Source: Diprion similis (lineage: Eukaryota > Arthropoda > Insecta > Hymenoptera > Diprionidae). Taken from it: a stretch of 64,000 nt of DNA. The position numbers and the translations under genes are program-made. The notes below the pieces were generated by a model that saw only the letters and a list, made by a program, of their open reading frames with translations, did not search any database and had not been told where the DNA came from. Of the stretch, positions 8,364 through 41,700 are shown one piece after another. Every line of letters starts with the position of its first letter. The stretch's first letter is position 1. Location: NCBI RefSeq assembly GCF_021155765.1, contig NC_060114.1, positions 16,377,501 to 16,441,500 on the forward strand, given 5' to 3'.

Positions 8364-10836
8364 ATGACTGCCCTTAGGTACGTGTATTCGAACGAAGCCA
8401 CTAACGTAGTTCGTTGTGTAATTACATTCTCATGAAAAGTACTATTTCACCGTGTCTTTCACAAGACTTTCATCGTGCCAAATTCGCTCACTAATAATAT
8501 ACTATTCTGCATTTAATAATAGAGTCAAAACAATAAAATATACTTTTGACAAATTCAACGATCAATCATCTCGTTTCGAAACAAATTGAAAGAAAAAATA
8601 TTGTTTTCGAAACTTCAAACCTCTAATTTCAGTGACGATCGTTCAGCTGCAACTGGTCTGGGGGGAAGTCGATGGCTGGAAGCTGTATGGGAGCCTGAAG
8701 CTCGTCTATACGTTTTACCAGGAGGTCTTGAAATACTCGATGTCTGCGGAGAAGGAGACCCAAGATTAGTTTGCGCGGATTTGGGAACAGCAACTACTAA
8801 TGCGGCCAAGGCACGCAGATGTATTTCATCCGCTATACAATTTTCTATCAATTGAGTTCGACTTATTAATATTCCACTACGATCTGCGCAGATCCGAGTT
8901 TACAAAGGTGGCGATCTGGTAAGTCAACACAATCTTGGAGACTGTCCGTCTGGTCTCGTCGGATTTTATTCTGAGAATGGAGAACACGGATCTGCTGCAT
9001 TGGCCGTTGCCGCTGGCTCGAGCGTTTACGTTTATAAAAACATGAGGCCATACTTCAAGTACTGTTTACCTCCGATGGATGCCCATGCAGGGGAAAGAGA
9101 AGTACGGGAATGAACATTTGCGGACGTAATTATGACTCGATCATTCGGCTTTATCACCTTAGAAATGACTTTTTCGCGTACAGATTTGGCACAGGGCTGG
9201 ATTAGAAGATGATCCGAACATACTGGCACTAACCGATGATTTGGAAACGTTATTGAAAGAGCATGGCGCGTCTCTATTATCACCAAGAACTTTGAAACTC
9301 CTTGGAATGGAATCTAATCTCAGATCAAGTTTCGTCCAGCAGTATCGTAGAGTTCCTTTGACAAGACCTGGCGTCGCTACAACTATTGCAACGATCCGTA
9401 AAGACTCCTGGAACAACGTAGCCAGCAGTTATCTTCTGATCGGTACAGAATCTGGTCAAATTTTAGTTCTAGACACAAGGTAAGGAGTTTGCTCACGAAT
9501 TGAAAAGAAAATTAAACAAAAATCGAAATTTTCGAAATTAGCATGAAAAAAAAATTCAACTTTCGGAAATTAAACACAGTTTAACACCTGCATGCATTAC
9601 ATATCGCAGAGCATTTACAGTTATTGACAGACTCCAGTTGGGATGGCCCCCAGTTGCGTTGATAGGCACGGGGCTTTGGGCCAAGGAGAGTCGAGTCGTT
9701 GCCGTAGGAAGAGATGGAAAATTGGGAGCAGTCAAGAGAGGTTCTGCCTCAAAACTGTGGTCCAAATTACCAGCGCCGGCAGTTTCTCTGTCAATTTTGC
9801 CAGGAGAAGGTGCCGCCGTGGCTGTGATGGATGGGAGCCTCTGGGGTTTTTCAAAAAAGGTAAAGGCACAAGGCTAAAATTTCAATTTTCATATCACAAA
9901 ATGTATGTATTTTTCTCACAAGGGTGCCCGATTGTGGAAAATTCAACTGCCAAATATTCCTCTGGACTTGGTCGGGCTCCCAGTGCCTCAACGAGGACTT
10001 TCGCTGCTTGCTGTGAGCGTGGCTAGATTCGGAGTTCGGATTTATGATGGAAAACACCACGTCGATACCATAAATACAATGGAAGCCGTATCCGCTATGA
10101 AGGTGATTTTATACATACATCCGTTACCGGGTGGTTTATGTACGATACCAAAAGTTTCTAAATCGTTATCTCAGCTGTAACTAACGATAACAGTATCTTT
10201 ATCACTTCGTAGTACGGTAGAATGGGACAAGAAGAACGTGCAATGACTATGGTGACAGTTGGAGGCGGTTTGAACGTCCGCATACTAAAAAGGACCGCAG
10301 ATTTCAGCACATATGTTGCACCGGAAATGCTGCCGAACTTTGGCAGCCGTTTCACGATACCAAAAAAGACGAGATTATTTGTCGAACAAACGATCAGAGA
10401 GAGATCAGAGGCTGTTAAGATTCACGATACGTTTCACCGAGGGTTAGCAAGGCTCAGATTACACACGGCTAAAAAAGCTGTCGATGAACTTACTACGAAT
10501 CAAGATAGTGGACCTAGTCCAGTCATCATCGATGCCAGTGTTCTCGGATTGGGTCCAGACTACATGATCAAAATTTGCGTTACTAACGTTTCTGATGCTC
10601 TGTCCGATACGGGGTTGTTCATTGTTTGCCGGGGTGAAAATGCCGATGTGAAACCAAGGGTTCTTAATCTACCCCTACTTCCAAGTACGGTTCCTATACC
10701 CTTGATAGTCAAAGCAAGCCCTCGAAGCATGATATCGGGAAAAGTGAAGATACTTTGCTGCAAAAAGGGTAGAGTAAAACCTGTAGCATTAACCAGCATT
10801 GTACTGCCGGCAGTTGAAGAAGAAATTCAAGCTTGA
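8364..10836 (+). CDS. BBS1: Bardet-Biedl syndrome 1 protein (BBSome subunit)
   Basis: BBSome subunit that forms a beta-propeller, contacts the ARL6 GTPase and carries membrane cargo into and out of cilia. Seven exons give 583 aa: 8364-8377, 8633-8810, 8892-9101, 9184-9479, 9610-9859, 9923-10102, 10213-10836. The first exon encodes only MTAL plus two bases and ends in a GTACGT donor; it fits in frame to exon 2 (GLGGSRWLEAVW). Family landmarks are VYVYKNMRPYFKY in the propeller, YLLIGTESGQILVLDT, SLWGFSKKGARLWKIQLP, and GGGLNVRILKRTADF followed by KKTRLFVEQTIRER. The C-terminal 200 residues form the gamma-adaptin-ear-like part. Length is close to vertebrate BBS1 (about 593). The second intron uses a GC donor. 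The exact X-box upstream supports ciliary expression. A poly(A) signal lies at 11042-11047. Confidence 0.94.
8811..8891 (+). other. GC-AG intron in BBS1
   Basis: Donor AAG|GCACGC, acceptor TGCGCAG. Removing these 81 bases joins ATTTNAAK to IRVYKGGD in frame, as in the family. The only nearby GT (8821-8822) would shift the frame, and reading through meets a stop. Confidence 0.75.
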
Positions 10837-15810: not shown

Positions 15811-17277
15811 GGATGTACGGGATCTAATCTGAGAGTAATTGATTATGTGCCAAAAAGATGTTCGAGTTCGTTTTACGAGCTGAATTACAATTTAAAAATA
15901 TTGCGATGTCGGAGATTATATTTTTAATTCAAAAAAAAAAAAAAAAAAATCTCAATTAGTTTCTATAAATGTTAAAAAGAAAGTTACTTAGTAATACTAG
16001 AATTTATTGAAACAATTTAATATCTAGATGTAAAAGGAATATGGTGCAATGTTAAACTTATTACTTTGTGCAAAGGTACTATTTCTGGAACAGATATTTA
16101 TATTACATACATGCCTATACTCTGTTGAATATGTTTTAAGATTCACAGTATAAACGATACCGTAGCTTGTTGATTGATTCAGTATTGCCAAAATTTTTTA
16201 TTTCATTAGAACGCGCAAAAACATTATCTACCTTCGACGAATTTCGTTTGTATCATTAACGAAACAGGGTGAATCGTAGAACAAAAATCATATGACTACA
16301 ATGAGAAATAGATTGCATTGTATGCATCACGTATGTAATCGTACGTTTAAACAAAAGTGTATTTTCAAGAAATCCATTTAAAAGTATCCTTAATAATCAA
16401 ATAACTTTGTCGTAATAGGTATTATTTACTATAAAAAGTAAATAAGATTACGATTACAGTTCCACTAGACTGATTATAAATGCATTTAACTAAGTCTGCA
16501 AGAACATATACCATGACGCTAAGTATAGTTAGGATAATAAAAGATTCTTTTCTCAAATATTTCCTAGGCAAAACTCAAGCTACGATTTGTCACGCTACTC
16601 AAAAAAGGAAAGAGCAGTCACTTTCAAAATCCAGTAGTTTCAATATTTTACTAGACATTTTTGATCCGAAACTTGAATCGAATTATGCAAAGCAACGCTT
16701 GAACCGATGCCATGGTTATTATCTTCATATATACTCTTGTGTAACATCAATTGCTCCAAGTCAATTTTAATTACGAGTTTTTAAGTCTGAACATTGCTCT
16801 CTTCTACGCCAATTCTGCTAAGCAAAATAATGCTTTTACTTGCAGTACGAATATGATAAAAAATATATACACAAGTCAAACAAAGATAAGAATGTTTGTT
16901 ATTTTTAATTAAAAAAGACCACGTCACAACTGTGTGTAAGAATCTTATACTGCGTACCTCTTAAGTAGGGTTTAAAATTTGTCAACTTATATTAGGATCT
17001 GATCAACCAATATATTCTGTTAAAAAAATTGTACGTTACCTCTAAATATACTTAATTTTTAAATATGTAAAACTTCCTAGCTTGGAATGGTGCCACTTGT
17101 TTACATAATATTGTAGAAAAAGAAATACCTATCCTTTTTTAATATATGAAAATACAATTATAATCTTTAATTAATATTAAAAAGGTGTTTCACTTCACAT
17201 GCACCCCCAGTTCATTTATTGCAATATTACTTTGAAAGTTTCCAATACATGAATTGATTCAATTTTTTACGTACACT
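15811..17277. other. Convergent spacer between TMEM8 and the dynein-tail gene
   Basis: AT-rich 3' untranslated and intergenic sequence with an A-run near 15932-15949. A 96-codon frame at 16480-16770 shows no domain. Importantly, no dynein motor exon is seen here on the minus strand, where it would be expected if the tail gene continued. Confidence 0.6.
17215..17220 (-). terminator. Poly(A) signal AATAAA of the dynein-tail gene
   Basis: AATAAA on the minus strand, 58 bases after the stop codon of the dynein-tail reading frame. It supports a genuine transcript end at this point rather than an intron leading to motor exons. Confidence 0.6.
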
Positions 17278-20200
17278 TTATGAATCGCTATCGTTACTCG
17301 CCTCGTAACTGCACAAACTCAATTCTTCCGGCGGAGTTGGTGTAGCAGCAGAAAACTTCTGTTCAGCTACAATGACTTTGCTCAATTCTATAAACAATAT
17401 TTCTCTCCAAGATTCACACTTCTCAATCATTTTCAGTTTCGCGTCTTTCATATCCAACTCTAAAAAATCAATGATCACCTCGTTTCCATGGTTTTCGATA
17501 GAATCTGCCAATTTCGTACATCTGCAAACGTAACTTTACATTATTCCTGTAATTTCCAGTTGTAAGTAATAACGGAAATGGTCAATAAACTGCATTGTCG
17601 TTTTACCGCCGTATATCACTTTCAAGTATTTCTCTGCTTGGCTCGTTTGCCGCGTAATACTGAACAATTTGTGTGATGTCGATCACTGATACTTCCTTAA
17701 AACATTCTGTAGAATTTACGTACTTAGTTATCGATCTTTTTAAATCTTCAATTTCTGCAAATTAAGAAATCTTGTAACATAATAATAATAACATGAGAAA
17801 AATGATGTTTAGTCTTCTTAAAAATAATTCTGCGGAATTCACCTGAGTTGATTTCATCCTGTATATTTTTACAAGAATCGTGCTGTTCGATCGATTCCCA
17901 GAATTCTGTAGCATCATTGCGAACCTCAACGTTTAACTTTTTTGAGAGCAATTCTAATGGTTTTATAACGTTTATTAAAGAATTAAACGTATTATTGAAT
18001 ATTTCTTCGATCTTCTCAATGTCCTCAGGAATAATCAGCTGCGAAATGATAAAAGTCAGCTGATCTATTGCTGCTTTCTCATTTTTCAAATATTGTAATG
18101 ACAAACGGACAATGAATTTACCTCATCACCGATATAATCAACTTTGACTCGGAACAAAGCCTTGCTGATATTGATTCCATCCCCTTTAATTAATCTCAAG
18201 GTAGTTCGTAACGAATTTATCACAGCTAAACAAAGCGATTCTTTCAATTTCAAATCTTTGGCTTCAATAAACTTGTTCCAGTGCTGTATTACCTAAACAA
18301 ATATTGTGTATCTTAGTTTATCAGCAGATTTTTACGATTTTCAATATCGTTTGTACGTAGATAACGATAAATGAGAAAACGTCGAAATGGATTTACCTCC
18401 TCAAAGTCTATTTCAAAGCCTTCTTTCATTCCTTTTAATAATCGCAGAATATTATCACAAGATTTTGTAACTTTGCACATTCCCTCTGCCCTGGTTAAAC
18501 ACACGATGTCATAAAATATCTATATTATTCTTAAGAAGGTTTGGAATAAATGAATTAAGATCCGATTGTACACACTTATTAATTTCCAAAGCAGTGCAAA
18601 AATCGTTCACTTGATAAGTTACGTCGTCGGATGCTTGGAGAAATTTTACGTTTGCGATTTCTTCAAAGTAATGGTCGATTCGTAAATTAGCCTTTTCGTA
18701 CAGTTCAAAAAACTCTTGAAGCTGCAATTAATAATTAATTCGTCAGTTCTTATTAATTATCAATATGCATTTATTCATACGATCCTTACGTTCAGTATTT
18801 CGACAGTAGAATCCGCGTAGAATTTCTCAACGTCTGGGGAATTCCAAGTAATTTTATCAAATCCAGGTATTACACAATTGTCGAGATTTTTCAAAAGCTC
18901 ACTGAACAACAAACGTTCATCGTCATTTGATATGCGTTCAAAAGTTCTGTTGTAACTTCTGCACAATAACACCGCTCCTTCGTATCGCAATTTTATGGTC
19001 AACAACTTAGTTGATAACTTTTTTAACGATGCTCTAACTTCAAAATTCAACGAAATCCATCTGAAAAATTTTAAATAGCTATAACAAAGGTGATATTAAA
19101 CTACACGATGTTTGTTCTGGATTTGTATGCGGGAGGAAAATCCTTGAGTTCATTATTCCCCCTTCAAATATTTACACTTTAGTTTCTTCCAATGTGTCCA
19201 AAAGGCGGTAGTCCATGTTCACTTCAATCGGTCCAAATTTGGATTTGATTCGACGTAAAAGCGGCTCCCCAAAAATACTAGTCAAGTTCTTTTCATCGTC
19301 CATCATTTTTTCCCATTCGTCGAACAGCAGTTTTTCCTCATTTGCAATGGCTGACACTAACTTTTTATAATTTCTCAATACAGGTCTGCAATAATTGATC
19401 ACGGTAAATAAACCCTAGAAATCTAGCAGTCTACGAGTCTCTAAATAACTGAATAACAATGGATTACATTTGAGCGTCACAGTCTCCAAGCCAATCAGAA
19501 GCATCGATCAAAGTAGTTTGATGCGACGTGAGTCTAGTTTGTCGTATTCGCAACATAGACGCTCGTCCTGAATAATACGGAGTCGAAGAATGGTACTCTC
19601 GGCTATGGTCTATAATATCTTGCTTACACTGCTGTATTTCCTCATCAAAATTCATCCAAATCTGCGAATACCGATGCATATTCATTACCCGACGATGAGC
19701 TTTCAGAACAATCCTAAGATTCGTACATTCTACAAATGAATTTTCAGCCGAGATGATGTGTATAAGATAAACTCACATCCACCAACTTCAGATGCAGAAG
19801 TTCGTTGATACATTCACGCTGATTGTACCGTTGCAAGGTATAAAGTGCCTCGATACTCTCTTTGATGCAGTTTGTGTCAGCAAAGATACTGTTAATAAGA
19901 TTCTTAACCATAACTTCAAGCTCGGTTACTTGATGTCGAAATAAAGTCATGTGTTCTATCCAAGTCGCTTCGGCGACATCGAGTATCTCTTGTTGGACAT
20001 TTTCGATAGCCTGCAAGTTTTCGTAGAACAAATTTTCTATCTTGTTACAATCACTTTCATACCGAGCTCCGTTCGATCCGCCAAAACTGACGGATTTAGA
20101 AGATCTGAAAGAGTTTGAATTCGAATAGATATGAGCGATCTTTTGCTTACTGTGTGAAGAGCGTTGCTTTTTACCTTCCGAACACAACAATTGTATCACA

Positions 20201-22427
20201 AATTTCAATAACGTCCTGGCACCGTGTGATGAACGCGTCGACACAATTGAACACATTTTCCCTGTCGACTTCCCACCTGATTTCATCACGGATGATATTA
20301 AAAATGATTTTGACGTGCTGCAATTGTAGGATAAATCATTTCCTTTAATTTTTTACGCTAACACATATTTTGTGCTGCGTTTATTTCTGAATCAGAATAA
20401 TAACTCTCACCTCGTCATAAATGTTCTTATATTTTTCGCAACAACTGATGCATACTTCAACTGTTTTTTTGCTTTCTATCGTTTCGCCTTGAAATATCAT
20501 CTTCAAATCAATCGATTCTCTACACGCTCCAACAATTTGAGTGCTCAAAGCTTGACAAAGACTTTCTATCTTATCCCTGCAGTAAAATTAGCTGTATAAA
20601 TAACAACTATCAGAAAATGAGGATAGAAATTTTTCGTTAACGATACCTACTTTGTATTGAAAAATGGCGATTCAAGCCAAATGTAACCGATCAAATGCAA
20701 GATCTCTGCAATTTGTTCATCCCGTATTTCAGGAATTTCTAACGCCGTACAAGGATCAGATAATAAGTCAAGATAATTGATGTTAGAAACGGCTTCGTCG
20801 ATCGCACTCTGTAGACTTTTACTCAGATCATAGAATTGTCTGATACTTGTAAATTTAACGTTCTCTAATTTTTCAACAATGCAAATAACGCCGTCATTTT
20901 GCAGCTGAGAACGAAGCCCACGTAAATTATCATCTGTAGTCAAGAAATATTTACCCATGAAACAAAAGACACCATATAACTTGACGGTCAAACTTTTATA
21001 TTCAAAATATATGTATAATGTTCGATATCTAACATGCGACTTTCCCTCAATGGCCATAAAAAGTCATATACAATCTCAATAAATTCACTTTTACAAATTA
21101 TGAACTTGCATCTGTAATTCCAGAAAGTTAATTCATCTGTAACTCTAGCCAACTTGCTAGCAGGGTTTTGATCAGCAATTGCTTCCCTGATTTGTCGAAT
21201 CCAAAAATTGGCTACAGTTTCTAATCTGCCTAGTAATTCCCCCTCGTCTTTGGCTCCGTCTACGTTTTCACTATCCTCCCACGCTCCTTCGTTCGATTCA
21301 TCATCGGCAGCAACGAGCACAAAATGATTATGTTCCTTAACTTTCTGAATTGCGTTAAAATCCGTTTCTTCTTTTGGAACATACAAAATAGTGAGTCCCA
21401 TTAATTTGTATGTTGTATCGGTTAATTTTGTCAGCAGGTTGTGAGTATTTGTGAAAATATTGTTCCTCTGGACTGCAGTACATGGAGATAATGTATGGAA
21501 AAAATTTTAATTGCTTCAAACGCCTGAGTCCTTTAAAGAAAAGTATGAATTACTCAAGGATACCGGATGGCCAGTCTTTGCTGTTGAATATCCCAAGTGC
21601 GTAAGCATTTTCCATAATTTTCAGTACACAATTTTCAATGCTTCCACTAATACTGCCAAATTTAATGGTGGAGTGAAAATTTTCAGGTGTATAAATCTGC
21701 CACGGTGATCTAAGAAAATAGGTGAGACCTTCGATCGCATCGGATGGAAAATCAAGGAGAGCTTTCAATGCATCAACATCATAGAAAATAGTCAGTATAA
21801 TTTTTGTTGGATCTTGAAAAAATTCGCGAATCACTTTACAGCAGTTTTCATTCCAATCTGAGGCATCTAAGGCAGGTAGAATAGTGAAGTCTTTCGCATA
21901 TTGTTCCTAGAATTTTTGAAAAAATGTAAATTCGTGAGCCTTCGACGCTTATTATTTTGTCAATACAACTACTCACAAGCTGTTGTAGCTCTTGGTCTGT
22001 AAATATTGGCTTTTCAGGTTCTGGTGGTGGCTCTTCCTCCGGTTCCGGTGTTTCTATAATCCATCATTTTTCATAGCGTATTCAATCTTTGATTTTCTCC
22101 AATAAGAAATACAAAGTTACAAGAATTTCAACTTATAATGAACAACAATTCGAAAGTCTAAGAAGGATTGCCTTGATTCAAAACCAGACCAAAATTTTTT
22201 CTATAAAAACAAATTTTCTGTTCTAATAATGATCCAGTTTTGGTCATCATCCCATCATCGTGGATTTAGAATTCATAATAAATTGGTCAACCTGGTTTTC
22301 CAAACTCTTCTTCATCAGTATCCATATCCAGATACTCTCTGTGCGGATCAGCCGGAGGTTTATCCATTTTCTTAGTTCTGTCAATTCCCTTCTCAGCTCC
22401 ATTTGAGATATCTTTTTTCCCGAGCAT
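17278..22427 (-). CDS. Axonemal dynein heavy-chain tail only (DNAH2-like, no motor)
   Basis: Seventeen exons join in frame to 1170 aa: 22292-22427, 21977-22053, 21564-21906, 21110-21472, 20651-20933, 20411-20576, 20175-20317, 19777-20104, 19468-19661, 19176-19385, 18790-19060, 18576-18721, 18397-18490, 18122-18292, 17843-18038, 17607-17754, 17278-17521. After an acidic, Pro-rich start (TPEPEEEPPPEPEKP) come DHC tail landmarks in order: FFQDPTKIILTIFYDVDAL, LTDTTYKLMGLTILYVPKE, FWIRQIREAI, the ILHLIGYIWLESPFFNTK segment, VFGRSSKSVSFGG, ELEVMVKNLINSIF, TPYYSGRASM, FGPIEVNMDYRL and ITWNSPDVEKFY. These match the DHC N1 region, most like DNAH2 (inner-arm I1 beta). Family proteins run to about 4400 aa with linker, six AAA+ modules and stalk; here the protein ends at SYEASNDSDS before the linker. 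All 17 exons are open, so it is not an obvious pseudogene. One intron is GC-AG. Tails bind intermediate chains and partner heavy chains, so a non-motile assembly role is possible. Confidence 0.88.
20934..21109 (-). other. GC-AG intron in the dynein-tail gene
   Basis: Donor AGAT|GCAAGTTC, acceptor GACTACAG. It joins ELTFWNYR to DNLRGLRSQL in frame, as expected for the family. The GT three bases further on would create an immediate stop. Confidence 0.7.
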
Positions 22428-23846: not shown

Positions 23847-26841
23847 ATGAATCGACAGTTGTTTGTCGGGCCAATTATTCATTCCGACCCTCAGGGACGT
23901 CTAGATGTGCTACAACGAGCTGCGATTCTCGTCGAAAATGGAAAGGTAATTAATTAATCTTGAAGATTACTCAATTTACGCATGATTGCATCACCGCAAT
24001 CGGTTATTCAAATTTTACTGACTCGTCCCGCGATTTACGGAATGGCGTTCGAATTTTGAATTTGAGTGCGTTGTTTTGCTAGTCGGTTTTGACGATTGGA
24101 TAAAAATTTAGTAATAATAAGAGTAACAATGATAATAATAACCATTTACAAGCATCATATTATGGGAAAATTTGGTTTTGAGAGAATATGGGAGAAATGT
24201 TCGTTCAATGACAGACGATGTTTCGTAAATTATGTGGTAACCAGTTCAAAATATCCGTTTTTTCTGTTACACTTCAGCGCGTAATTCAAAATTATTTTCG
24301 ATGTGCACATCTATGGTCAGCTATGACACAGCATGAAATGAAGTACGGGATTTAACGACTAATCTGAACCGCTGCAAATCGCGAGCCATTTGCCATCGAG
24401 TCCAAACAATAAAAATAATTTATACTTCGCAAACGATAACGAGATTCGGATGTGAGAATCGGCCGAACACTAGTTGCTATACCAGTAGTTGATTTTTCTT
24501 ATCAGTATTTATGGTTATTTCGTTTTTTATGTCATAAAAACGACGATCTCAGTCCAAGGATGTGACAGTTATCGTTCTTTTTTTTCAATATTTCGTATGA
24601 GTTGTGATAAGATTAGAAATAAATAACTCGAAGCAGCTAGATACTTTGTTGATATTACAACTCTTGATTGTGTAACATGCAATGTTATGGGTAATCATTA
24701 TTAATTTTGAAATCGTCAAAGAATTGGTCGCCCTGTTTTACCTATGCAGAAGCTCTGTTTTACCCTGCGAACATTATATTTGACCAAATTCAAACAACAA
24801 AAAAAAAAAAAAAACTGAATAAAAGTGAATTCATAGTATCTGAAATTTTGTAATGGTATTTTTAAATCTTGGAATTCGGAAATAAGATCCGGTTCATGAG
24901 AAAATCTGCTTTGAGATTGAAAATTCGATTTAATAAAAGGAAAATTCCTGATGCGGTAATGATTTTCTTACACGCTTGGCTTCCGGCAACCAGATTACCA
25001 GTGTATCAGAGAATCCTAAACCAGGAGACGTCAATGCTGACTATGTCAGAGTCTTGAGCGCAGGCCAATTTCTAATCCCAGGATTTGTTGATGGTCATAT
25101 TCATGCGGCGCAGTTCCCAAATTTGGGAATTGGCTACGATAAATGTCTTCTAGATTGGTTGGAGACTTACACCTTCCCGTTAGAGAAAAAATACGTTGAT
25201 TCAGCATTTGCAGAACATGTGTACGAAGCGGTAGTCGTAAGTTGCCAGGATTTAAAGCAAGCACTTCATGAATGTTCATAAGTTCATTAATTCATCGGAG
25301 TTCTTACCTTTATTCATAGAAAAGAACTCTAACAATGGGAACTACTACAGCGTGCTATTTCGCATCCTTGCACACAGAGTCGTCTCTAATTTTGGCCAAA
25401 CAGGCTATAAAGTATGGGCAGCGATGCTTGGTGGGAAAGGTGAACATGAACCAATCGCGGAAAGATGGTTACTATGAAAGTACCGAGGAATCTATCGCCG
25501 GGACCACAAAGATGATCAAAGAAATTGCTGAATTAAATGTGAGAAAATAGACAAATAGAGAAATTGAAACAATTATTTCACTCTATGAGCAGATACTTTT
25601 ATAAATTTCCAGCGAAAAAAGTAATAAAAAATTCTATGAAATAAGAGAGTATTGAAGCGAAAAGTGAAGAATGGAAACTAAGAGAAAAAAAAATTTATAT
25701 TGCAGAGTTCATTGGTAAAGCCAGTAATCACGCCAAGGTTTGCCCTGAGCTGTGATATGGAGCTCATGACTGAGTTGGGAAAACTGGCGAAAGAAATGAA
25801 AGTTCATGTCCAGGTAATTAGATAATTGAATTTCAATCATGCACCTAAGTTTCTCGCCAGAATTGAAAAGCTTGAAAGATGAGTTCAACAATTAGTAATA
25901 TCATACCCTTCTCTGAAACTTTTTTCAGACCCACATTTCTGAGAATCTGGATGAAATAGAAGCTGTGACGACGACTTACAGGGAATATCCCTCTTACGCT
26001 GCTGTTTATGATGCCGCTGGCCTTTTAACAAACAAGGTAAATCTAAAGCGTGGAAACTCAACTTACCACGAATTATAACGCCGCTCATGAAAAATAATGG
26101 CATTTCATTTATTGATCCACAGACTGTATTGGCTCATGGAATCCACCTTGGGGATAGCGAACTTGCGCTCCTCAAAAGCCGAGGATCTGCCATCATTCAT
26201 TGTCCATCTTCAAATACTTGTTTGAGAAGCGGCCTATGCGATGTGCAGCGTTTGAAAGATCGGGGACTTAAAATTGGACTGGGAACCGGTAGGTTACATT
26301 CCATGCAGACCCTTTCTTTCCATTTTCAATGGAGTGAGGACCAAAGGACCAAATCCAGTAGGAAATGGGAATGACGAATAGGTACTTATTCAACTGTTTA
26401 TCATTCTTGATGCAGATATTTCCGCCGGAGATAGTTCTTGCATGCTGAATGCAATGCGAGCCGCACTTCAAGTTTCATATCATTTATCTATCCTTACACC
26501 TGGTTACACCCCACTGAACTACACGGATGTTTTCCATCTAGCGACATTGGGAGGAGCTACCGGTAAGTTTAAAAAAAAAACCTGAAGTTAACAAATTTTA
26601 CGATTTGCCTATTTTACCATAATCTCTGTTTCATCTTACAGCCTTGGCCATGCAGGATGAGATAGGGAGTTTTGTACCTGGAAAACAGTTTGATGCTCTT
26701 GTTATTGACTTAAACGGATCGAGCGGGCCACTTGACAATTTAATTGAATACAGCTTAGAGAACAGGCTTGAGAGGCTGATTCACTCAGGTGATGATCGCA
26801 ATATCGTCGAGGTTTATGTTACTGGTCACCGGGTGAAGTAA
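23847..26841 (+). CDS. GDA: Guanine deaminase
   Basis: Zinc amidohydrolase that deaminates guanine to xanthine in cytosolic purine catabolism. Eight exons give 429 aa: 23847-23945, 24994-25236, 25320-25538, 25706-25813, 25929-26036, 26123-26288, 26416-26562, 26642-26841. The start reads MNRQLFVGPIIHSDPQG, the typical small beta-sandwich part. Metal and catalytic positions are present: PGFVDGHIHAAQ (His68, His70), THISE (His225, Glu228), VLAHGIHL (His264) and GTDISAG (Asp315, split by an intron). NMNQSRKDGYYESTEES and LRSGLCDVQRLKDRG are also characteristic. The C-terminus EVYVTGHRVK closes the beta domain. Length is slightly below human GDA (454). The first intron is 1 kb, the rest short. The stop overlaps a GTAAGT word, so an extra 3' exon cannot be excluded. 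Poly(A) signal at 27001-27006. Confidence 0.95.
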
Positions 26842-38772: not shown

Positions 38773-41700
38773 ATGGAGGATACTCTGGCATCGATCAGAC
38801 CTCCGAACGATGATTCGATGGACGCTCGACTTTCTTTTTTGGATGGTCGCGATCCTAGCATCGTGGCTTATGGGCAAGTCAGGATTCCGGCAGCTGATAC
38901 TAAAAAGAATTTAGAGTCTCTTTTCGAGGATGAAGAGCTTGAATCGCGGATACTTTCATCCTCTGCCCCGTCATTGTCTGTCTTGGGCGATACGGTCAAA
39001 GTCTACCTGAGACTTAGGCCGTTTCCTGTTAAAATGCGACCGACTAAACAACAGCAGGAAGCTTATGAAATAATAAATTCCACTACGTTGCTAACAAGAC
39101 TACCAAGATTGGATTCGAACACCAGTTCACTCAAAAGATCCAAGGAAAGTGAAACGGTATTGAGAAAATTCACGTTCACGCAAACTTTTGGACCGGAAAT
39201 AACTCAGCTCCAGCTTTTTGATATGGGTATTAAACAACAGATGAATGAATTTTTGGCTGGGCGAAACTCCACAGTCATGAGCTACGGTAAGTCATTTCTA
39301 CAACTAATTCTTAGTTTTGGTAGAAGCCAATGTTTTGCGAAACAACACTGTTTGAAGTACATTTTATTTTGTTATCGGTAGTAAAATTTTATTCTTTGGA
39401 ATATGCAGATATCATAAAATAATGAAATGAAACAATTACTTATTGTAATGGGTGAAAACAGCATTTTGATTTGTCATCTTAACTATACTCCAGGTACAAC
39501 AAATGCGGGTAAATCCTTTACACTTCAAGGAACAACAGTTTCTCCTGGTATAATACCTCGAGCGTTGGAGTTTGTGTTTAATCAAATTAACCCCAGAAGT
39601 ACGCCTTATTATAAACCAGTGTACAATACCGACGTAGTGAGTCTTGATGCGAACGAGAGAGCACAAGAAATGGAGTTGAAAACAAAGCTTCTTTCTTTTG
39701 GTTCGATTGATAAAAATCAATACATTCAGGCCTATAGAGCAATGCAACAGCAATTACAGGATGAGTCTCCTTTGAAGCCGAACGAAACAAGCGATGCCAA
39801 TTATGCGATCTGGGTTTCGTTTGCTGAAATTTATAACGAAACAATTTTTGACTTATTGTCAAACGACTGTCAGAAAAAACGACCGCCTTTAAAACTCGCA
39901 ACGGATAGTAGTGGAAAAGCTTTCATCAAGGGGCTCAAGACCGTGTGTGTCAATTCAGCTTCAGAAGCCTATCAGCTACTAATGGCTGGACAATATAATT
40001 TGAAAGTTGCTGCTACTGCGCTGAATACTAGAAGTTCTAGGTCTCATTGTGTTTTCACTATTAAGGTGCTCAAGTATCATAAGGAAAATTCTCCAGCAGA
40101 TGTGGAGGTCAGCTCGTGAGTATGAGTCATTATTGTTGTTGGTGATTTACTTTTCAAAACATGTGTTCAAGAATCCATAAATATTCATCCTTGTTAATTT
40201 GTTTAGTTTTTCTTTCTGCGATCTCGCGGGTTCGGAGCGTTTGAAGAAGACGCTAAACGAGGGAGAACGCTTGAAAGAAGCGCAAAATATAAACACTAGT
40301 TTACTTGTTCTTGGCAGATGTTTGAAATCCATATTTGAAGTTCAGACATCAAAGTCCAAACAGGACATAATTGGACCCTTCAGAGAGTCTAAGCTGACTC
40401 GGTTGTTTCAAAGTGCATTGTCCGGTAAAGAGCACATTGCACTTATAGTCAATGTTAATCCAGTGCCAAATTTGTACGTTGAAACTCAGAACGTTTTGAA
40501 CTTCTCTGCCATCGCTAAGCAAATAGTCATCGAACCTGTTATTCGGGTAAAACGAAGGGTCTCCACGTCCAGATTCTCTCAAATGGTGTCACAGAGCATC
40601 AAAACTGTTACGGACTGGGACGTTACGGAATTGGAAAGCATTGGTGGGTAGCAATCAACTAATACGAATGTCGAAATTTCAATGAAGACCCAAATTCCGT
40701 AACAATTCTGTATCTTCCATCTTCAATCTTCCATCTAACACCAATCAATAACGCTCTTGCAAAATATCAGTTGTAGATGAGGACCAGTCTTCAGCAATTT
40801 CAGAGAAAGCAGAATACGTTCATGCTGAGGACTATGAAGAAATGGTGATTGAAAATGAAAAATTAAAACAAGAAATAGTAAAGCTAAAAAATTCTGCTTT
40901 GGATGCAGACTTTGCAATTCGCCAAGAGATGTCCAACATCTATTCGGATATGATAAAAGACATCGAAAGAAACTTCAAGTAAGTCCGTAATATTCTTAAT
41001 TCTTCTCAATCTTGTATCGTGTGATTTGATTACTAATTCTTGAAATACAGAAATCAGTTGCAAGACGTTGAAGAACGACAAGAAGATATGCTCGAATGGT
41101 CTGTTCAACAAGTTGAAAGTTATTATAAGAAAAAATTGGAAAAGTTATCTAGTAGAAAAAGAACCCGAGTTGAGAGTGAGGACGATACAGACGAAGAAAT
41201 AGATGTAAAAGAATTAGAAGACGAAAATGTTCAGCTTAAGGCGAAGGTTCAATCTCTGAAAACAACCATTAAAGATCTTCGCGAATCTAAAGACAAACTG
41301 TTTGCTCAAAATAACGAAAATGCTTTCGAACTTTCCCTTGCCAAAAAGGATTTAGAAAATTGCAAAAACTTACTGTACGCCGCGCAAAATAACATAGGCT
41401 GCGATGATAAAGCTAAAGGTGTCATCGAAGAACTGAAGAAACAGCTATCGGCTCGTGAGGACCAAATTAAGGTACATCAATCTGTTATTTACGACATATT
41501 TCTAGTGCCATTTTAACAACATTCTCTTTAATCCAGTCCCTGAAAGAGTATTTGAACGAAGCAAAAGTTGAATGGCTCAGATCTACTGATGTCGAATCAA
41601 AACTGGAAGAAGCATTGAAAAATAAAGATAAGGAGCTGTTGGAATCTTCGGAAAAGATTGATGATCTTATGGAGCAACTTGAACACACTAACGTGTGTCT

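What the first reader, a model, noticed from the sequence alone, without database searches (positions are those of the whole stretch)
17278..22427. Intact, motor-less dynein heavy chain: a DNAH2-like tail as a free-standing gene
Seventeen exons with good splice signals and continuous frame encode only the axonemal DHC tail (1170 aa). The order of landmarks matches the first quarter of DNAH2-type heavy chains. Translation then ends with a short Ser/Asp-rich tail, and AATAAA follows 58 bases later. No linker, AAA+ or stalk exon is present to the left on the same strand, where convergent TMEM8 begins. A decaying fragment should show stops or lost splice sites; none is seen. A tail-only heavy chain could occupy a docking position, dimerise with a partner heavy chain without force output, or act dominantly in sperm. 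It could also be the 5' half of a split gene whose motor half lies elsewhere.
Basis: partly seen in the sequence, partly recalled or inferred. Interest (0 to 1): 0.82.

Follow-up and report, generated by a model that had tools for sequence, protein, structure and literature searches.

The report
Motorless dynein tail gene, DNAH2-derived
Besides a normal gene for the cilia motor DNAH2, this animal genome (probably an insect's) has a second intact gene that encodes only the motor's anchoring tail and none of its engine, which suggests use as a passive scaffold in sperm tails or sensory cilia.

Summary
Seventeen minus-strand exons (22427..17278) splice into an intact 1170-aa frame with a complete DHC_N1 domain (338 bits). 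Its best solved relatives are DNAH2 (318 and 301 bits) and the Chlamydomonas I1 1-beta chain (279); outer-arm beta scores 112. It ends before the linker, and no motor sequence was found in the window.

It is not half of a split gene. Motor hits in this genome fall in 15 loci. One, on contig C13, is a full-length DNAH2; no second DNAH2-type motor was found. Of 8 DHC_N1 loci only this one lacks a motor. It is an old partial paralogue: 38% identical to the C13 tail, dS saturated.

The motor-distal tail is still constrained, while the motor-proximal part has relaxed in this gene but not in C13 (p = 0.0005; the cut was set after a first look). This fits long service without a motor. Likeliest role, inferred: a motorless subunit of inner-arm dynein I1/f, as motor-deleted chains in Chlamydomonas still assemble. 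Expression, partners and presence in other species are untested.

The parts
22292..22427 (-). exon 1 (start codon at 22427; weak donor gttgac)
21977..22053 (-). exon 2
21564..21906 (-). exon 3
   Evidence: C13 paralogue matches from aa 73
21110..21472 (-). exon 4 (GC donor; in-frame GT donor 15 nt further on)
20651..20933 (-). exon 5
   Evidence: DHC_N1 hit
20411..20576 (-). exon 6
   Evidence: DHC_N1 hit
20175..20317 (-). exon 7
19777..20104 (-). exon 8
   Evidence: DHC_N1 hit
19468..19661 (-). exon 9 (acceptor atcggtattcgcag|ATTTGG keeps the frame)
19176..19385 (-). exon 10
18790..19060 (-). exon 11 (end of DHC_N1, aa 828)
18576..18721 (-). exon 12 (start of the relaxed, motor-proximal part)
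18397..18490 (-). exon 13
18122..18292 (-). exon 14
17843..18038 (-). exon 15
17607..17754 (-). exon 16
17278..17521 (-). exon 17, with a C-terminus that does not align with DNAH2, and stop codon 17280-17278
17215..17220 (-). AATAAA

Best explanation
The gene is an old partial duplicate of DNAH2, the beta heavy chain of the two-headed inner dynein arm I1/f. It encodes the N-terminal region and the DHC_N1 tail but no linker, AAA+ ring or stalk. Shown here: an intact coding gene, DNAH2 ancestry, a separate full-length DNAH2, no second DNAH2 motor found, and selective retention of the motor-distal tail. Inferred: the protein is made, pairs with DNAH10 (one DNAH10-type locus is present), binds intermediate and light chains as a normal DNAH2 tail does, and docks an I1/f-type complex without the beta motor, that is a one-headed or passive regulatory scaffold, in sperm or in chordotonal sensory cilia.
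For: Intact frame and splice sites over 1170 codons, while about 1.9 stops are expected per 1% of neutral substitution. DNAH2-type tail with the full-length paralogue on C13 and a DNAH10-type locus, C2:12.19 Mb. Sites where C13 and human DNAH2 agree: the window gene keeps 130 of 211 in aa 1-829 but 21 of 58 in aa 830-1150 (p = 0.0009); C13 reciprocally 130 of 189 and 21 of 31 (p = 1.0); partition test p = 0.0005. Precedent: motor-deleted outer-arm beta and gamma chains assemble arms (PMC12338079, passages); a mutant without the I1/f beta motor is described (PMC6249098, passages); DHC5 tail fragments without motor occur in axonemes of normally swimming cells (PMC11151096, passages). Recalled, paper not held: Perrone 2000, under 20% of the 1-beta chain reassembled I1 with full-length 1-alpha.
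Against: No RNA, protein or relative was seen. The gene evolves faster than C13 (branches 1.11 and 0.58). No excess of X-box-like sites upstream (4 found, 3.8 in crude shuffles). Weak exon 1 donor and GC exon 4 donor. The C-part tests rest on 126-141 columns, with C13 exons missing for aa 846-922 and 981-1058, and the cut at aa 830 was set after the binned table. Chlamydomonas cells lacking motors come from mutation; that a separate tail gene is used in this way in nature is not shown.
Confidence: 0.5

Rival explanations
1. A remnant without function: a second full-length DNAH2 lost its motor recently and the left-over 5' part has not yet decayed.
For: Faster evolution than C13; marked loss of conserved sites in aa 830-1150; no expression evidence.
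Against: No stop or lost splice site in 1170 codons, with 1.9 stops expected per 1% neutral change. Relaxation is confined to the motor-proximal part, which suggests that the truncation is not recent while the rest stayed constrained. No motor relic in the window.
Confidence: 0.2
2. Neofunctionalised tail: the protein works outside an I1/f arm, for example as a competitor that limits DNAH2 assembly, an assembly aid, or a binder of intermediate or light chains elsewhere.
For: Only 36% identity to the C13 tail and a long branch; an extra acidic insert near aa 225-255 that C13, human and Chlamydomonas lack; a C-terminus that does not align.
Against: The first 829 residues keep 62% of the C13 = human sites, including the N-terminal region (25 of 33), as a chain that still assembles with the old partners would.
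Confidence: 0.2
3. Split gene: the motor half is encoded elsewhere and is joined at RNA or protein level.
Against: 48, 50 and 30 motor hits were all assigned by position to 15 loci; the only DNAH2-type motor found is collinear with the C13 tail; the only motor locus found on contig C10 is DNAH7-like, 8.4 Mb away; the frame ends with stop and AATAAA.
Confidence: 0.03
4. Assembly or gene-model artefact.
For: No direct evidence; one genome only, and no RNA.
Against: The locus lies inside a 22.56-Mb contig, the window holds no N apart from the header letter counted, and a convergent DUF3522 gene follows.
Confidence: 0.03

Closest known systems
DNAH2 / Chlamydomonas 1-beta (DHC10), beta heavy chain of inner dynein arm I1/f; Drosophila kl-2
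   Same: Best match over aa 26-1142, complete DHC_N1, groups with the C13 DNAH2, five shared intron positions
   Different: No linker, AAA+ ring or stalk; compact introns against a C13 gene spread over about 840 kb; motor-proximal tail relaxed
Motor-deleted heavy chains of Chlamydomonas mutants (oda4-s7, oda2-t, I1/f beta without motor, dhc5 strains)
   Same: N-terminal tail without motor; such chains assemble (PMC12338079, PMC6249098, PMC11151096; passages)
   Different: Those are mutant alleles of the only copy; here a separate, old gene exists beside the full-length one
Cell-type-specific dynein paralogues of Drosophila sperm and chordotonal neurons (PMC6367277)
   Same: Insect duplicates of dynein-arm parts; chordotonal neurons keep an IC138 paralogue, MIA and CFAP43 although I1/f heavy chains are testis-only
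   Different: No tail-only heavy chain in the passages and sections that I read; tissue of the present gene unknown

Membership tests
DNAH2-type axonemal dynein heavy chain | DHC_N1 tail domain | tested here: met
   PF08385 3-562 of 562, 338.3 bits
DNAH2-type axonemal dynein heavy chain | Closer to DNAH2/1-beta than to other heavy chains | tested here: met
   318, 301 and 279 bits against 112 for outer-arm beta; nearest relative in the genome is the C13 DNAH2
DNAH2-type axonemal dynein heavy chain | Linker (DHC_N2) | tested here: not met
   Not in Pfam scan of the protein, no hit in the window
DNAH2-type axonemal dynein heavy chain | AAA+ ring and microtubule-binding stalk | tested here: not met
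   No AAA_6 or MT hit in the window
DNAH2-type axonemal dynein heavy chain | Assembly into arm I1/f with DNAH10 and intermediate chains | not testable with these tools
   One DNAH10-type locus is present; binding needs an experiment
Pseudogene / decaying fragment | Stops, frameshifts or lost splice sites | tested here: not met
   None in 17 exons
Pseudogene / decaying fragment | Uniform loss of constraint | tested here: not met
   Loss is regional
Pseudogene / decaying fragment | No transcript or protein | not testable with these tools
   No RNA or proteome at hand

The most novel reading that the evidence does not exclude
A dedicated motorless inner-arm scaffold: this lineage uses a tail-only DNAH2 to build a complex at the I1/f position that carries the IC138/MIA/tether regulatory parts without the beta motor, most interestingly in chordotonal sensory cilia. 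In Drosophila those regulators are kept, and the IC138 paralogue is needed, although the I1/f heavy chains are testis-only (PMC6367277); a tail-only chain could supply the missing platform.
Probability: 0.2. Interest if true: 0.85.

Novelty: new variant of a known kind. Interest (0 to 1): 0.62.

Why it matters
Motor-deleted heavy chains in algal mutants have been used to separate the structural role of a dynein from its force. A natural gene that has kept only the structural half, beside an intact full-length copy, would show that evolution uses that split, and would give a direct way to ask what the I1/f arm does as a regulator rather than as a motor. It would also offer a candidate answer to why insect sensory cilia keep I1/f regulators without its motor.

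Tried and rejected
Split gene or trans-splicing: disfavoured. Frameshift at exon 8/9: suspected, because the nearest canonical introns shift the frame; resolved by the acceptor before 19661, which also aligns with DNAH2 without a gap. X-box (RFX) sites upstream: no excess (4 against a mean of 3.8 in block shuffles). dN/dS against C13: dS saturated (pS 0.82), so only dN 0.59 is informative; 776 codons from 8 C13 matches, the match in the last C13 exon being too weak for that cut-off. A chimera of motor pieces was dominated by the C13 AAA1 piece; a second one was biased against the short C13 linker pieces, so that DNAH2 chains matched another gene's longer piece best; single-gene searches settled it. 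Structure prediction was not run: the spliced protein does not stand letter for letter in the window, and alignment partners would have come from genome loci that the tool does not name as allowed. Species: a COX1 fragment reads in the invertebrate mitochondrial code; that it looks hymenopteran is recall. Print: searches for a motorless heavy chain listed no natural tail-only gene (20 of 45, 20 of 60 and 12 of 145 listings seen; one search returned none); the library lacks most subscription papers, and Kollmar 2016 and Perrone 2000 are not held. PMC2674883 (passages) says that arthropod heavy chains were not analysed there; PMC3468612 (passages) had nothing that bears on this.

Full report
Observation. 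The minus-strand gene was rebuilt from its splice sites: 17 exons, 22427..17278, 1170 aa, one stop at the end, AATAAA at 17220. Every junction keeps the frame. The weak spots are a GC donor after exon 4, a poor donor after exon 1, and an exon 8/9 junction for which I found the acceptor before 19661 to be the fitting one. The product is 135 kDa, pI 4.7. Pfam finds one family, DHC_N1, complete (338.3 bits).

Identity. Against solved chains the protein matches DNAH2 (9fqr_D0 317.7 bits; 8j07_k9 301) and the Chlamydomonas I1 1-beta chain (279.1). The fourth of 12 rows is an unnamed putative chain at 138.3 bits, outer-arm beta follows at 112. The match runs from residue 26 to 1142 and reaches DNAH2 residue 1041. 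Linker (DHC_N2) pieces of this genome start to match DNAH2 at about residue 1222, so the protein ends well over 100 residues before the linker. The homologous C13 exon ends, as I read it, near DNAH2 residue 1057; the last 25-30 residues of the tail-only protein do not align with confidence. A duplicate that broke within the next intron would give this; that is inference.

Where is the motor? Own-genome searches for DHC_N2, AAA_6 and MT gave 48, 50 and 30 hits, which I assigned by position to 15 loci. DHC_N1 gave 40 hits in 8 loci; 7 of the 8 have motor hits on the same strand, the window has none. The tool scores only the best candidates, so counts are lower bounds. The window protein's nearest relative in the genome is on C13 (10488904..10792391; 42, 37, 36 and 31% identity for the four matches with E below 1e-15), followed in order by linker, AAA1 and stalk hits up to 11327227. 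C13 motor pieces score 503 and 491 bits against DNAH2, 386 against the 1-beta chain and 369 for the next chain. Among the 15 motors none pairs closely with C13 (best 47% in its most similar stretch), whereas gE/gH, gC/gN and gF/gI reach 62, 65 and 71%. A DNAH10-type locus is present (320 bits). The only motor locus found on contig C10 is DNAH7-like (261 bits). The split-gene idea is thus disfavoured.

Age and constraint. Window and C13 tails share 37.9% of 776 aligned codons; dS is saturated and dN is 0.59. On 630 columns shared by four sequences window-C13 identity is 36%, window-human 30%, C13-human 35%, human-Chlamydomonas 41%; the tree groups window with C13 (delta lnL 60.5), branches 1.11 and 0.58. 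Both are fast, so long-branch attraction may add to that support. By the breaks of the C13 matches, five intron positions are shared (near aa 186, 306, 456-471, 504-511 and 613), and four introns of the window gene (aa 401, 678, 748, 1090) fall inside uninterrupted C13 reading. The copy was thus made from genomic DNA, and long ago.

The most telling result is regional. At sites where C13 and human DNAH2 agree, the tail-only gene keeps 130 of 211 in aa 1-829 but 21 of 58 in aa 830-1150 (Fisher p = 0.0009; 20 of 54 up to aa 1130, p = 0.0019). The reciprocal for C13 is 130 of 189 and 21 of 31 (p = 1.0). Branches, window/C13, are 0.98/0.60 in the first part and 1.62/0.25 in the second; the partition test gives 2 delta lnL 15.3, 2 df, p = 0.0005. 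A count of unique changes gives p = 0.012, and a human = Chlamydomonas test that does not need C13 gives 116 of 231 against 17 of 55, p = 0.011. The cut at 830 follows the end of DHC_N1 (aa 828) but was set after the binned table, so the p-values are somewhat optimistic; the second part has 126-141 columns, because C13 exons for aa 846-922 and 981-1058 were not recovered. The stretch that in a normal chain leads to the motor has been freed; the stretch that dimerises and binds intermediate chains (recalled from dynein structures, not tested) has not. Long use without a motor predicts this; uniform decay does not.

Mechanism. In Chlamydomonas, beta and gamma outer-arm chains without motors still assemble arms (PMC12338079, passages); a mutant without the I1/f beta-chain motor is described (PMC6249098, passages); DHC5 tail fragments without motors are found in axonemes of normally swimming cells (PMC11151096, passages). 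The I1/f core consists of the heavy-chain tails with intermediate and light chains and contacts ODA1 through IC140 and nearby f-beta helical bundles (PMC10266980, passages). A DNAH2 tail could therefore suffice to build the core, and I infer a beta-motorless I1/f arm with DNAH10. In Drosophila the I1/f heavy chains are testis-only, yet chordotonal neurons express and need an IC138 paralogue and keep MIA and CFAP43 (PMC6367277: abstract, passages, sections 17 and 27). That survey notes that they lack IC140, which is needed for the IC138 sub-complex in Chlamydomonas; this counts against a simple transfer of the idea. A tail-only DNAH2 would be a fitting platform there. This is the boldest reading; nothing here shows the tissue, and the upstream region has no excess of X-box-like sites.

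Limits. One genome, no relatives (the tool offers none for it), no RNA, no proteome, no structure model. 

Noticed in passing
G000:C13:10488904-11327227 (L021, L039, L043, L078, L081-L086): The full-length DNAH2 is spread over about 840 kb, with gaps of tens to hundreds of kb between exon hits, while other dynein genes here are compact; reminiscent of the giant-intron dynein genes of the Drosophila Y (recalled; PMC9031259 seen in a listing only).
   Followed up: partly
window 10213-10836 (+): BBS1-type GAE domain (PF23304, 41 bits): a second cilium-related gene about 7 kb from the tail gene.
   Followed up: no
window 38773-40651 (+): Kinesin motor domain in pieces (PF00225, 129 and 106 bits).
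   Followed up: no
window 24952-25281 (+): Amidohydrolase-like gene (PF01979 at 21.4 bits, below its cut-off of 25; guanine-deaminase-like by recall), divergent from the tail gene across about 2.5 kb.
   Followed up: no
window about 21365-21265 (-), exon 4, aa 225-255: An acidic insert of roughly 30 residues that the C13, human and Chlamydomonas tails lack.
   Followed up: no
G000:C7:8182164-8182700 (+): A second COX1 match (137.8 bits, 5 TGA) inside a nuclear contig, probably a nuclear copy of mitochondrial DNA.
   Followed up: no
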